DNA of 64,000 nt from Chitinophagaceae bacterium (lineage in GTDB: Bacteria > Bacteroidota > Bacteroidia > Chitinophagales > Chitinophagaceae), in assembly GCA_947374225.1 (NCBI GenBank), contig CANCAY010000002.1:1-64000 (forward strand), written 5' to 3'. Shown piece after piece: positions 48,529-52,116 of the stretch; position 1 is the stretch's first letter; the number at the start of each line of letters is the position of its first letter. Position numbers and translations under genes: made by a program. Under the pieces are notes generated by a model that saw only the letters and a program-made list of their open reading frames with translations, was not told where the DNA came from and made no database searches.

Positions 48529-49767
48529 TTATTTAATAAACGGGTCTGACCATCGCTTGTCTGTATACACTGCCGCGCCAGTTAGGGTTTTCATAAAAGC
48601 GGTTATGGCAGTTATTTCGTCTGCGGTCATGTTTAATTTTTGTCCAATATTATTGGGTCTTAATCTAGGATCTAAATTTGTATTGCGAACAATGCTAATA
48701 TTATTATAATGGCCTAATACATCTTGTATCGTTTTTAATTGACCCGTATGCATCATTGGGCTATTGGCAAGCCCATTTGGATTTATTAAATCTCTTAATG
48801 AGGCAGATCTTGTATTGGCAATATCTAATACAGTACTTCCTATAGTTCCAATTATTCCATTATTTCTAGTGTTGGAGTCGATATCAAACTCTGGGGCTCT
48901 ATGACAACCGTTACAACCAGCTCCACCACTAATTCTTACACTATTGCCGTCAAATACTGGCGGAGTGGAGAATAATGTTTTTCCGGTATTTTCTATGGTA
49001 GAATAATTAGGAAAATCTCTATTGTTATTGTTTACCTGAGCACGTCCAATATCATATTTAGAGTCGAATGACTGAATGCTACGTATAAATTGCGCCAATG
49101 ACTCTTGCAGTCTATTTTCAGTTATTAAAGTGTCTCCGTATGAAAATTTAAATAATTCCTTATAGTATCCAATGCCAGTTAATTTATTTAAAAGTGTTGA
49201 CATGGTGCCTCTTCCGTTTAATCCGCTAAAACCCATTTCAGCGTGATCCTGGATTGGCATGGTAGTTTGTATCTCAAGTGTCGCTGCTCTTTCATTCCAG
49301 AAAAATTTACTTTCTTCCGCAAATCTACTATTCACTAATCGCATTGCATGTCTAACCGTAAGGCCAGACTGTACACCGTCACTTTGAATTGCAGTGTCTC
49401 CAAAAGCAAATTTTTGATTATGACAACTACTACATGAAATTGTATTGTCTACACTTAAGTTTTTATCATAAAACAAGACCCTTCCTAGTGTTGCTTTAGC
49501 GTCTGTAATTGGATTTGCTGTCCCATTATCCTTTAAAATATAATTAGGCTTATTTTGATTTGCATAATTGAACAAACTTGTTGGATCAATATTAGTTCCA
49601 AATGCAATTTTTATATTGGCATAGGGGTCTACTGTTTTAGCAGTTTCTGTTACCACACTTGTTGTAGGACTTGTAGTTAGTGTACTTAAACTATCTGTTT
49701 TAGAGCAGCCAATTGCTATTACAGTGATTATTGCAGTGGAGATGATTGTTTTTGTAACGCTTCGCAT
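48529..49767 (-). CDS. Di-heme cytochrome c peroxidase (MauG/CcpA-like) lipoprotein, intact
   Basis: 412 aa. The N-terminal signal (STAIITVIAIGCSK) has a lipobox IGC. Haem site 1 is ISCSSCHNQKFAFGD near residue 109 and haem site 2 GCNGCHRAPEF near residue 284, with NGRGTMSTLLNKLTG and the C-terminal NSPMMHTGQLKTIQDVLGHY also conserved. It reduces peroxide or carries out MauG-like oxidation in the periplasm using electrons from a small cytochrome. Unlike the paralogue at 5317 it is uninterrupted and has no MbnP gene beside it. A 49-nt near-palindrome ends 4 bp from its start codon. Confidence 0.92.
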   Translation of the reverse strand: MRSVTKTIISTAIITVIAIGCSKTDSLSTLTTSPTTSVVTETAKTVDPYANIKIAFGTNIDPTSLFNYANQNKPNYILKDNGTANPITDAKATLGRVLFYDKNLSVDNTISCSSCHNQKFAFGDTAIQSDGVQSGLTVRHAMRLVNSRFAEESKFFWNERAATLEIQTTMPIQDHAEMGFSGLNGRGTMSTLLNKLTGIGYYKELFKFSYGDTLITENRLQESLAQFIRSIQSFDSKYDIGRAQVNNNNRDFPNYSTIENTGKTLFSTPPVFDGNSVRISGGAGCNGCHRAPEFDIDSNTRNNGIIGTIGSTVLDIANTRSASLRDLINPNGLANSPMMHTGQLKTIQDVLGHYNNISIVRNTNLDPRLRPNNIGQKLNMTADEITAITAFMKTLTGAAVYTDKRWSDPFIK

Positions 49768-49886: not shown

Positions 49887-50108
49887 CTAGTTCTGAATTG
49901 TATCCTTCTTGAATATATTAAACAATAGATACCCCATTAAGGCCCCGTAAAGGGTGCTATTAATTGGTTTTGAGGTAATCATACAAGTGCCACTGGCACA
50001 GCCAATAAATTTATAATACAAAAATCCAGCAAGGGCGCCTATCAAAGCTCCAATAATACTTAACTTATTTTTATTTATCCAGCTTGTTATATTGTTAGTT
50101 TGGATCAT
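49887..50108 (-). CDS. DUF6132-like small membrane protein
   Basis: 73 aa with two membrane helices. The pattern IGALIGALAGFLYYKFIGCASGTCMITSKP, with a Cys pair between the helices (GCxSGTC), then STLYGALMGYLLFNIF, is that of DUF6132, found next to rhodanese and thioredoxin genes in Bacteroidota. The paired Cys facing the periplasm may be redox active or carry sulfur. It is the last gene of the Crp-rhodanese-rhodanese unit, 17 bp after the previous stop. Confidence 0.8.
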   Translation of the reverse strand: MIQTNNITSWINKNKLSIIGALIGALAGFLYYKFIGCASGTCMITSKPINSTLYGALMGYLLFNIFKKDTIQN

Positions 50109-50125: not shown

Positions 50126-50434
50126 TTATCTAATTTTTCCAACAAGCACATTCCAAGGCCCGCCGTTATATACTTCCACACCAGCCCCTTTTAATATTGA
50201 TTTTGCCATACTACTTCTAGCGCCACTCTTGCATACTGTAATGATAGGCTTGCCTATTTTTTTAATAGCAGCAACTTCTCTTTGAATTCTGTCTAGTGGA
50301 ATATTCTTGGATCCTTGAATATGGCCACCATCAAATTCTTGTGGAGAACGAACGTCTATTATAACAGCACCATTCTCTTTCAATGCTTTGAAATCCACAC
50401 CTGGCCCGAAAAGTTTTTTTATAAAGCTGAACAT
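50126..50434 (-). CDS. Rhodanese-like sulfurtransferase (second copy)
   Basis: 102 aa single rhodanese domain. VIIDVRSPQEFDGGHIQGSKN is the conserved first motif and the active-site loop is VCKSGARSSMA with catalytic Cys. It has a membrane-proximal N-terminus (MFSFIKKLFGPGVDFK) as in YgaP/PspE-like proteins. It transfers or accepts sulfane sulfur, or serves as a persulfide carrier. It starts 1 bp after the upstream rhodanese stop, so translation is coupled. Confidence 0.92.
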   Translation of the reverse strand: MFSFIKKLFGPGVDFKALKENGAVIIDVRSPQEFDGGHIQGSKNIPLDRIQREVAAIKKIGKPIITVCKSGARSSMAKSILKGAGVEVYNGGPWNVLVGKIR

Positions 50435-50435
50435 A

Positions 50436-50723
50436 TTAGTTATTATTTAAAATATTATTTAATGTAAAAATTCCACCTCCGTTATAGATTTCGGTTATGC
50501 CATTTTGCTGTAGAACGCTTGTAGCAATGCCACTTCTGCCACCACTTAAACAATATACAACAATAGGCTTCGGAAGTTCCGCTATCGTCTTAATTTGGGA
50601 CTCAATAGTATCTAGTGGAATATTTAATGCACCTTGAATATGGTCTTCTTCAAATTCCATCTGGCTTCTTACATCCAATAGGGTACCTTTTTTCTCTTTA
50701 ATTTGTTGAATTACTTTTTGCAT
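50436..50723 (-). CDS. Rhodanese-like sulfurtransferase (first copy)
   Basis: 95 aa single rhodanese domain, TLLDVRSQMEFEEDHIQGAL at the N-terminus and active-site loop VYCLSGGRSGIA with catalytic Cys. It is first in the three-gene unit rhodanese-rhodanese-DUF6132. A perfect TGTGA-N6-TCACA palindrome lies 48 bp upstream of its start, right behind the Crp/Fnr regulator gene, so regulation by that protein is likely. Function in sulfide or persulfide handling is inferred from the family. Confidence 0.92.
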   Translation of the reverse strand: MQKVIQQIKEKKGTLLDVRSQMEFEEDHIQGALNIPLDTIESQIKTIAELPKPIVVYCLSGGRSGIATSVLQQNGITEIYNGGGIFTLNNILNNN

Positions 50724-50770
50724 ATTTTTTAATTTACGCTACAAAATTCACTATTAATGAACATATTGAC

Positions 50771-50786
50771 TGTGATATTTATCACA
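50771..50786. promoter_or_regulatory. Perfect Crp-type operator TGTGATATTTATCACA
   Basis: The 16-mer has 7-bp perfect arms TGTGATA and TATCACA with a TT centre, identical to the classical Crp half-sites TGTGA/TCACA. It lies 48 bp upstream of the first rhodanese start and 63 bp behind the Crp/Fnr regulator gene, in a 125-bp intergenic region. It is the best candidate binding site for the neighbouring regulator. Confidence 0.8.
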
Positions 50787-50848: not shown

Positions 50849-51484
50849 TTAGTCTTTTTTGATCCACTCGAATGAATTTCTATTCAGCACGATCCATTGG
50901 TGATTTTCCATCTTTTTTAACAACCTGCTAACCACTTCTCTTGAGGTATTCAAGTCGTTTGCAATTTCCTGATGGGTTAATTTAAGGGTATTCCCAAATT
51001 GTTTTACTTGCCTTTTGATATAAAATTCAAGGCGCTCATCCATATTTTTAAAGGCAGTTTCGTGGATGGTTTTTAGTAATTCTTCATACCTAAGTCGGTA
51101 GGTTCTTATTACAAAATAGTGCCAACTCTTATACTGGTTCAGCCATTTGTCCATAAATTCAATTGGGATAGCTAAGAAGCTTACATCAGTCACTGCTTTT
51201 GCCAATACTTGACTCTGCTCTAAATGATAATTACAAACCATGGTGACAGCACAAGCCTCCCCGGGATTTAAATGGTACATAAAGTATTCAGCCCCTTCTT
51301 CATTTTCTTGATATAATTTAACCGTGCCTTCCACCACCAACATAGTAGACTTAATATTTTGCCCCATTTTAAGCAAAGTGGCCCCTGCGGGTGCGGTTCT
51401 TAGTTCCGCATGTTCTATAATTGATTCGTATAATCCGTCTTCCCAATCGGGAAATAGTTGCTTAATTTGGTCTTTGTTTAACAT
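50849..51484 (-). CDS. Crp/Fnr-family transcriptional regulator
   Basis: About 211 aa from the ATG at 51484 (MLNKDQIKQLFPDW). The track start at 51532 adds 16 residues and would overlap the upstream Crp-like site, and a -7-like box (51502-51509, minus strand) also favours the later start. It has a cyclic-nucleotide-binding-type beta-roll (APAGATLLKMGQNIKSTMLV, YHLNPGEACAVTMVCN), a dimer helix and a helix-turn-helix with recognition segment LNTSREVVSRLLKKM. There is no Fnr-type N-terminal Cys cluster, so the signal is not obviously an Fe-S cluster. It probably controls the flanking sulfur/redox genes. Confidence 0.92.
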   Translation of the reverse strand: MLNKDQIKQLFPDWEDGLYESIIEHAELRTAPAGATLLKMGQNIKSTMLVVEGTVKLYQENEEGAEYFMYHLNPGEACAVTMVCNYHLEQSQVLAKAVTDVSFLAIPIEFMDKWLNQYKSWHYFVIRTYRLRYEELLKTIHETAFKNMDERLEFYIKRQVKQFGNTLKLTHQEIANDLNTSREVVSRLLKKMENHQWIVLNRNSFEWIKKD

Positions 51485-51517
51485 AGCGATTAAATTCATT
51501 GTGAAGATAATCTTAAA

Positions 51518-51533
51518 TGTAATAAAAGTCACA
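51518..51533. promoter_or_regulatory. Crp-like site TGTAATAAAAGTCACA in divergent promoter
   Basis: TGTAA-N6-TCACA differs from the perfect site at 50771 by one half-site base, with flanking AT matches giving ATGT...ACAT. It lies between the Crp/Fnr gene (start 51484) and the small membrane protein gene (start 51577), where it could autoregulate one and control the other. Confidence 0.55.
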
Positions 51534-51576: not shown

Positions 51577-51783
51577 ATGCAAAAATGGTATAATAAAATT
51601 GACTGGAGATTAGTTATGCGACTTGTAATGGCAGCTTCCATGGTTATTGTTGGATATCAAAGTAATGACTATATCCCAGCGGTATTTGGCATAGGTTTTG
51701 CTATATATGCAATCATTGGAGCTAAATATAAAATTGGATGTGGTTATAATGGATCCTGCGGCTATCCAGCACGAAAAAATTAA
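51577..51783 (+). CDS. Small membrane protein, YgaP/DUF2892-like
   Basis: 68 aa with two hydrophobic helices (LVMRLVMAASMVIVGYQ and IPAVFGIGFAIYAIIGA) and a Cys-containing tail, KIGCGYNGSCGYP. It resembles the small membrane proteins found next to rhodanese and thioredoxin genes in Bacteroidota; the two-Cys tail may be redox active. It is the first gene of a unit with thioredoxin, 24 bp downstream, and lies behind a Crp-like site. Exact family uncertain. Confidence 0.65.
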   Translation: MQKWYNKIDWRLVMRLVMAASMVIVGYQSNDYIPAVFGIGFAIYAIIGAKYKIGCGYNGSCGYPARKN

Positions 51784-51807: not shown

Positions 51808-52116
51808 ATGTCAACAACAGAAACCTTTGGTACCATTATTAATGGCGACAAGCCAGTATTGGTTGACTTTTTTGCCACTTGGTGTGGTCCTTGTAAAATG
51901 ATGCCGCCTATTTTAGAAAAAGTACATGAAAAATTGGGGGAGCAAGTACGCATTATTAAAATTGATGTAGATAAGAATCAAAAATTAGCTGCTGAATTAA
52001 ATGTGTCTAGTGTACCTACCTTAGCCATTTTTAAAAATGGGAAAATTCAGTGGAGACAACCTGGGGTGCAGCAAGCTAATGAACTAGTGGGTCTGCTTAA
52101 AAAATATATTGTTTAG
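51808..52116 (+). CDS. trxA: Thioredoxin
   Basis: 102 aa classical thioredoxin. Active site FFATWCGPCKMMPP, cis-Pro in SSVPTLAIFKNGK, and KIDVDKNQKLAAELNV as usual; no signal peptide, so cytoplasmic. It reduces disulfides and could recharge the nearby rhodaneses or the thioredoxin-dependent ArsC at 20330. Its 3' end overlaps the convergent glpD gene by 4 bp. Whether it is the housekeeping thioredoxin or one specific for the sulfur cluster cannot be told. Confidence 0.95.
   Translation: MSTTETFGTIINGDKPVLVDFFATWCGPCKMMPPILEKVHEKLGEQVRIIKIDVDKNQKLAAELNVSSVPTLAIFKNGKIQWRQPGVQQANELVGLLKKYIV

What the first reader, a model, noticed from the sequence alone, without database searches (positions are those of the whole stretch)
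50771..50786. Perfect TGTGA-N6-TCACA palindrome between a Crp/Fnr gene and two rhodanese genes
TGTGATATTTATCACA is an ideal Crp-type site placed 48 bp before a rhodanese-rhodanese-DUF6132 unit and next to its probable regulator, which lacks an Fnr-type Cys cluster. This links a Crp-like protein directly with sulfane-sulfur or persulfide handling in a Bacteroidota organism; its signal is unknown.
Basis: partly seen in the sequence, partly recalled or inferred. Interest (0 to 1): 0.55.

Follow-up and report, generated by a model that had tools for sequence, protein, structure and literature searches.

The report
Crp-type switch for a persulfide-defence regulon
The perfect palindrome is a conserved DNA switch through which a CRP-like protein, carrying an invariant cysteine where CRP would hold cAMP, most likely turns on hydrogen-sulfide and persulfide detoxification genes throughout Bacteroidota; its DNA side is well supported here, the chemical it senses is inferred.

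Summary
TGTGATATTTATCACA (50771-50786) is the only perfect TGTGA-N6-TCACA in the 2.46-Mb genome. A second copy (51518-51533, one mismatch) lies on the other side of the Crp/Fnr gene, before a small membrane protein and a thioredoxin. Both sit exactly 21 nt before a TAnnTTTG-like (-7) promoter element. That spacing recurs at the orthologous sites (TTTG at +25/+26 in 100 of 133), which is the geometry of a class II activator. The composite site recurs in the genome before persulfide dioxygenase-rhodanese, TauE-YeeE, SQR-like, CoA-disulfide reductase-rhodanese and TolC-RND genes. In relatives it gives 62 hits in 40 genomes that carry the regulator (control pattern 1), against 3 hits in 34 genomes without this type (control 2). 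Regulator residue 188 (Glu or Val) goes with the operator (TGTGA or TGTAA), as CRP's Glu181 contact predicts. One cysteine is invariant in 215 of 215 regulators (a second in 182), in the former cAMP pocket, whose cAMP ligands are missing. I read it as a Crp/Fnr-fold, thiol-based reactive-sulfur sensor that activates sulfide and persulfide detoxification. The DNA side is well supported; the signal is inferred. No paper on it was found in the library held.

The parts
50771..50786 (-). Operator 1, perfect TGTGATAAATATCACA, serving the rhodanese unit
   Evidence: identical in sister genome L126, where the locus DNA is only 86% identical
50742..50749 (-). -7-like promoter element GAATTTTG, 21 nt after operator 1
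50436..50723 (-). rhodanese 1 (95 aa)
   Evidence: PF00581 E 2.9e-15
50126..50434 (-). rhodanese 2 (102 aa)
   Evidence: PF00581 E 1.2e-15
49887..50108 (-). DUF6132 small membrane protein (73 aa)
   Evidence: PF19628 E 3.4e-8
50849..51499 (-). Crp/Fnr-family regulator (216 aa; in-frame GTG start possible at 51532)
   Evidence: PF00027 + PF13545 + PF00325; AlphaFold2 pLDDT 90.8
51251..51253 (-). Cys83 codon, invariant in 215 of 215 regulators
51233..51235 (-). Cys89 codon, Cys in 182 of 215 regulators
50909..50944 (-). recognition helix SREVVSRLLKKM (Arg187, Glu188, Arg192)
   Evidence: alignment
51518..51533 (+). Operator 2, TGTAATAAAAGTCACA (one mismatch), serving the divergent unit; also 19 nt upstream of the regulator ATG
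   Evidence: kept in L126 and L128-L134
51555..51562 (+). -7 promoter element TAACTTTG, 21 nt after operator 2
51577..51783 (+). 68-aa small membrane protein, clusters with DUF2892-like neighbours of the orthologous regulators
   Evidence: cluster 9; no Pfam match
51808..52116 (+). thioredoxin (102 aa, WCGPC)
   Evidence: PF00085 E 3.7e-29, TIGR01068 above cut-off

Best explanation
The palindrome is the operator of the neighbouring Crp/Fnr-family protein, which acts as a class II activator of a reactive-sulfur (sulfide, persulfide, polysulfide) defence regulon. Steps with computational support: a dimer with the CRP-type recognition helix R-E-x-x-x-R binds TGTGAY-N4-RTCACA; the site is centred near -41 (it ends 21 nt before the TAnnTTTG element, where a -33 element would lie), so the bound protein would contact RNA polymerase and rescue promoters with degenerate -7 boxes; the targets are rhodaneses, DUF6132, a DUF2892-like protein, thioredoxin, PDO-rhodanese fusion, TauE/SafE, YeeE-type sulfur transport proteins, an SQR-like protein, CoA-disulfide reductase-rhodanese and a TolC-RND pump. 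Inferred step: sulfane sulfur modifies Cys83 (in two-Cys members perhaps bridging to Cys89) in the degenerate cAMP pocket and switches the protein to its DNA-binding form; thioredoxin and persulfide reductase made by the regulon then reset it.
For: Footprint downstream of the regulator in most orthologs. TTTG at +25/+26 after 100 of 133 sites against about 1-5 at other offsets. Four perfect composite sites in the genome, all in front of sulfur genes or the RND operon beside the SQR-like gene, and five more one-mismatch sites in front of TauE, SQR-like, HMA-YgaP, CoADR-rhodanese and ccoN. Relatives: 31 of 40 regulator-bearing genomes have exact composite hits (62 hits, control 1) against 3 of 34 others (Fisher p about 1e-9); first genes there are TauE, PDO, SQR, Rhd, Trx and TolC. 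PDO promoters carry a spaced site in most regulator-bearing genomes examined and in none of 11 without a detected regulator. Residue 188 against operator base 4: Glu with GG 89, mixed 49, AA 1; Val with AA 9, others 0; CRP Glu181 contacts that base pair (PMC11253593). Cys83 215/215. The two other intact Crp-type proteins in the genome lack the R-E helix and are response-regulator fusions.
Against: No binding, expression or chemistry data. Eighteen of 215 members have Gly instead of Cys89, so an intramolecular Cys83-Cys89 bridge cannot be universal. Residue 188 changed only about 5 times on the tree (2 well-supported independent pairs), so the covariation is consistent but not statistically independent. 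Some targets (ArsP permease, RIC next to it, ccoN) would also fit nitric oxide, metal or oxygen stress. About a quarter of orthologs show no close site within the scanned range. Class II activation is read from spacing alone; transcription start sites are not mapped.
Confidence: 0.7

Rival explanations
1. Same operator and regulon, but the protein is a repressor released by sulfane sulfur (like CstR, SqrR, BigR): it blocks the promoters until Cys83 is modified.
For: The known Cys-based persulfide sensors CstR, SqrR and BigR act as repressors; operator 2 lies 19 nt before the regulator ATG and could repress the regulator's own promoter.
Against: The site takes the place of the -33 element at a fixed distance from the -7 box in 100 of 133 loci, and the -7 boxes are mostly degenerate (first base T in only 23%), typical of activator-dependent promoters.
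Confidence: 0.15
2. Same operator and activator, but the Cys pair senses something else: general disulfide or electrophile stress, nitric oxide, metal or arsenic, or heme-bound CO/NO as in CooA (which uses a Cys heme ligand).
For: ArsP permease + thioredoxin-like protein (divergent from RIC) and HMA-YgaP promoters among the sites; Cys in the effector pocket; CooA is a distant match in the PDB search.
Against: No invariant His that could complete a heme site (invariant list); core targets across genomes are PDO, TauE, YeeE, SQR and Rhd, not NO or metal genes.
Confidence: 0.15
3. A cAMP-type or FNR-type global regulator binds the site and the gene neighbourhood is incidental.
For: TGTGA-N6-TCACA is the textbook CRP site; a one-mismatch site precedes ccoN in the genome.
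Against: Only one perfect site and no genome-wide enrichment; CRP Glu72 has no counterpart and the Arg82 position is not conserved; no Fe-S Cys cluster; the other two intact Crp-type proteins have TESLIR helices; the composite site tracks presence of this regulator.
Confidence: 0.04
4. Chance palindrome without function.
For: One-mismatch matches of the bare pattern are not above the control in this genome.
Against: Footprint, fixed promoter spacing, genome-wide target coherence and regulator-operator covariation.
Confidence: 0.01

Closest known systems
E. coli CRP (CAP)
   Same: Fold, TGTGA-N6-TCACA operator, R-E-x-x-x-R recognition helix, position near -41 (class II)
   Different: No Glu72 counterpart and no conserved Arg82, so no canonical cAMP site; Cys83 stands at CRP Ile70; local sulfur regulon; about 20% identity over the fold
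Persulfide sensors CstR (CsoR family), SqrR/BigR (ArsR family), FisR (sigma-54 activator)
   Same: Control the same kind of genes (SQR, PDO/Blh, rhodanese, TauE) beside the regulator; use conserved Cys (PMC9774590, PMC5823870)
   Different: Unrelated folds; CstR, SqrR and BigR are repressors, FisR needs sigma-54. Here a Crp/Fnr fold with class II geometry on Bacteroidota TAnnTTTG promoters
EUBREC_1222, PDB 3dv8 (Crp/Fnr family, Eubacterium rectale, uncharacterised)
   Same: Nearest solved relative by profile (E 7.7e-30), with C-x5-C at the same cassette position and a REVITR helix
   Different: From a Firmicute; function and operator unknown
FNR and CooA
   Same: Superfamily; signal sensed through Cys-bound cofactors
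   Different: No Cys cluster of FNR type; no invariant His for heme

Membership tests
Crp/Fnr superfamily | N-terminal cNMP-binding-like beta-roll, long dimer helix, C-terminal winged HTH_Crp | tested here: met
   PF00027, PF13545, PF00325 above cut-offs; AF2 model pLDDT 90.8; Foldseek top hits CRP-like
Crp/Fnr superfamily | CRP-class recognition helix R-E-x-x-x-R with TGTGA operator | tested here: met
   Arg187 and Arg192 215/215, Glu188 176/215, Val members go with TGTAA; direct binding not tested
cAMP-CRP | cAMP ligands Glu72 and Arg82 | tested here: not met
   Profile alignment to CRP: Glu72 falls in a gap, Arg82 position is T/K/A/Q in most members (R in 9 of 215)
FNR | four Cys ligands for 4Fe-4S | tested here: not met
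   only two Cys in the window protein and in most orthologs
CooA-type heme sensor | heme with Cys/His ligands | tested here: inconclusive
   Cys present, no invariant His; heme binding not testable here
Thiol-based persulfide sensors (functional class) | conserved regulatory cysteine(s) | tested here: met
   Cys83 215/215, Cys89 182/215
Thiol-based persulfide sensors (functional class) | regulon of SQR, PDO, rhodanese and sulfur transport genes | tested here: met
Thiol-based persulfide sensors (functional class) | DNA binding switched by persulfide or polysulfide at those Cys | not testable with these tools
   needs protein
Class II activator | operator at fixed position near -41.5 next to the -7/-10 element | tested here: met
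   21-nt spacing to the TAnnTTTG-like element at both window sites; TTTG at +25/+26 in 100 of 133 sites; TSS not mapped

The most novel reading that the evidence does not exclude
A phylum-wide Bacteroidota persulfide regulon is run by a previously undescribed subfamily of Crp/Fnr activators that turned the cAMP pocket into a cysteine persulfide switch, with two natural operator specificities (TGTGA with Glu188, TGTAA with Val188), and that includes an RND efflux pump not so far linked to persulfide stress.
Probability: 0.5. Interest if true: 0.78.

Novelty: new variant of a known kind. Interest (0 to 1): 0.64.

Why it matters
The well-studied bacterial persulfide sensors belong to the CsoR, ArsR and sigma-54 activator classes and come from Firmicutes and Proteobacteria (PMC9774590, PMC7315123). 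No equivalent for Bacteroidota was found in the papers searched, although PDO is nearly universal in the family sampled (39 of 40 genomes). A Crp/Fnr activator would add a fold and probably a sign (activation) to persulfide sensing. It comes with a ready test system, including a natural Glu/Val specificity switch, a single invariant Cys and a defined promoter geometry in culturable Chitinophaga, Pedobacter and Flavobacterium. It would also name targets (TolC-RND pump, DUF6132, DUF2892-like proteins) whose roles in sulfur stress are unknown.

Tried and rejected
Genome-wide count of the bare 16-mer: no enrichment, so it is not evidence by itself. SQR-like gene as an independent footprint test: failed because this SQR-like protein was absent from all 49 other genomes searched. 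Hits inside genes (SusD-like C2:103892, EF-G C22:1250) were dismissed. Lower-identity homologs were meant as a negative control but turned out to sit beside the same sulfur genes, with a changed helix and operator. Literature: searches with 'Crp Fnr' returned nothing because the tool cannot search the slash; other wordings found no Crp/Fnr persulfide regulator of sulfur-oxidation genes, only persulfidation of an Acinetobacter Crp of unknown effect. A published report in a subscription journal cannot be excluded. The automatic orientation of PDO loci was wrong for minus-strand hits and was redone.

Full report
OBSERVATION. The sequence TGTGATATTTATCACA is at 50771-50786 as stated, 48 bp before the start codon (50723, minus strand) of the first of two rhodanese genes followed by a DUF6132 gene, and 62 bp beyond the stop of a Crp/Fnr-family gene. 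It is the only exact TGTGA-N6-TCACA in the 2,463,634-base genome; with one mismatch the pattern is not enriched (37 against 51 for the reversed control). The bare match is therefore notable but would not stand alone. A second site, TGTAATAAAAGTCACA at 51518-51533, lies on the other side of the regulator gene, before a divergent 68-aa membrane protein and a thioredoxin.

CONSERVATION. I collected about 220 loci with homologous regulators from family genomes and from named genomes (Chitinophaga, Niastella, Sediminibacterium, Pedobacter, Mucilaginibacter, Dyadobacter, Flavobacterium). A TGTGAY-N4-RTCACA palindrome lies shortly after the regulator stop codon in most of them. In the closest relatives both operators, upstream and downstream, are kept (L126, L128-L130, L132-L134). 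The sister genome L126 has 86% DNA identity over the locus but identical operators. Control motifs of the same composition gave 0-2 hits in the 176 Glu-type regulators and at most 4 in the 36 Val-type ones. Gene neighbours are repeatedly TauE/SafE, PDO-rhodanese fusion, rhodanese, DUF6132, DUF2892-like, thioredoxin, YeeE and DUF6691 (domain names). The regulator family is found in 123 of 396 sampled genomes of the phylum (E <= 1e-50).

PROMOTER GEOMETRY. After the palindrome, TTTG begins at offset 25 in 93 and at 26 in 7 of 133 sites, against roughly 1-5 at other offsets; an A stands at offset 22 in 90%. This is the TAnnTTTG -7 element of Bacteroidota (PMC7366714), usually with its first T missing. 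Both window sites have it at exactly 21 nt (GAATTTTG, TAACTTTG). The palindrome centre is then near -41 (inference; no mapped start site), where a class II CRP/FNR activator sits and where the -33 element would be.

REGULON IN THIS GENOME. The composite pattern (palindrome + 23 nt + AnnTTTG) has four exact matches: operators 1 and 2, the PDO-rhodanese promoter, and a TolC-RND operon directly after the SQR-like gene. One-mismatch matches include TauE-YeeE-DUF6691 (divergent from PDO, with its own operator), the SQR-like gene, HMA-YgaP, CoA-disulfide reductase-rhodanese and ccoN. An ArsP permease-thioredoxin unit has the palindrome with a slightly shifted -7 element. In one-mismatch mode the count is close to the control (12+2 against 7+6), so the weight lies on the four exact hits and on what the weaker hits precede.

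REGULON IN RELATIVES. Exact composite hits: 62 in 40 genomes with a Glu188 regulator (31 genomes with at least one; control 1), against 3 in 34 genomes with only the Val type or no detected regulator (control 2; Fisher p about 1e-9). Of 28 fetched loci from Glu188 genomes, 19 precede TauE, PDO, SQR, rhodanese or thioredoxin genes and 4 precede relatives of the TolC gene. PDO promoters carry a spaced site in most regulator-bearing genomes examined, whether or not the regulator is adjacent, and in none of 11 genomes without a detected regulator.

REGULATOR-OPERATOR COVARIATION. Lower-identity homologs also sit beside PDO, TauE and Rhd genes but have Val at residue 188. They show no TGTGA-type site; many have GTAAC-N4-GTTAC, often overlapping the regulator stop codon, with the same promoter spacing. 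Counting clean operators: Glu188 with GG 89, mixed 49, AA 1; Val188 with AA 9, none other. In CRP the equivalent Glu181 reads the C of the fourth base pair of TGTGA (PMC11253593); from memory, Glu181Val in CRP is a classical specificity change at that base pair. Only about five changes of residue 188 occur on the tree, so this is consistent mechanistic evidence rather than an independent-events statistic.

SENSOR. Cys83 is present in all 215 distinct regulators and Cys89 in 182; in most members they are the only cysteines. Aligned to CRP, Cys83 falls on Ile70 and Cys89 next to Phe76/Glu77, in the phosphate-binding cassette; Glu72 falls in a gap and the Arg82 position is not conserved. The AlphaFold2 model is confident overall (pLDDT 90.8) but weaker at this cassette (72-81), where helix 84-91 lies. 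PDB 3dv8, an uncharacterised Eubacterium rectale Crp/Fnr protein, shares the C-x5-C. The two other intact Crp-type proteins of the genome are response-regulator fusions without this Cys and without the R-E helix. With the regulon, this points to a thiol-based sulfane-sulfur switch. The chemistry is inferred, and single-Cys members mean that a Cys83-Cys89 bridge cannot be the only mode.

PLACE AMONG KNOWN SYSTEMS. It works like the persulfide-responsive regulators CstR, SqrR/BigR and FisR (PMC9774590, PMC5823870) but belongs to the Crp/Fnr superfamily and shows activator geometry. It is not a cAMP-CRP or an FNR by the tests above.

VERDICT. Confidence is about 0.9 for regulator-operator-sulfur regulon, about 0.8 for activation and about 0.6 for Cys-persulfide as the signal.

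Noticed in passing
L209:5898-10501 (G000 C25): A TolC-HlyD-RND efflux operon after the SQR-like gene carries an exact composite operator; TolC relatives in other genera do too (L359, L360, L365, L366), so an RND pump seems to belong to the sulfur regulon.
   Followed up: partly
L216-L235, L266-L305: A sister Crp/Fnr subfamily with Val188 and often only one Cys accompanies the same sulfur genes and has a TGTAAC-N4-GTTACA operator frequently overlapping its own stop codon; targets include peroxiredoxin-like genes (L378, L386).
   Followed up: partly
PDB 3dv8 (EUBREC_1222): An uncharacterised Firmicute Crp/Fnr crystal structure has the same C-x5-C in the cassette; the sensor type may reach beyond Bacteroidota.
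   Followed up: no
L211:2824-2839 (G000 C32): A one-mismatch operator with correct promoter spacing precedes ccoN (cbb3 oxidase); a response-regulator-Crp fusion lies on the same contig, so sulfide control of respiration or plain oxygen control are both possible.
   Followed up: no
L396 (G000 C72): The contig carries a G+C-rich-looking SDR gene unlike the rest of this A+T-rich genome and may be contamination of the MAG.
   Followed up: no
window 48529-49767 (-): A CCP/MauG di-haem peroxidase gene follows the DUF6132 gene after 119 bp; whether it is read through from operator 1 is unknown.
   Followed up: no
L210:2297-3466: The operator between RIC (iron-sulfur repair) and a thioredoxin-like + ArsP permease unit hints at overlap with NO or metal stress.
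   Followed up: partly
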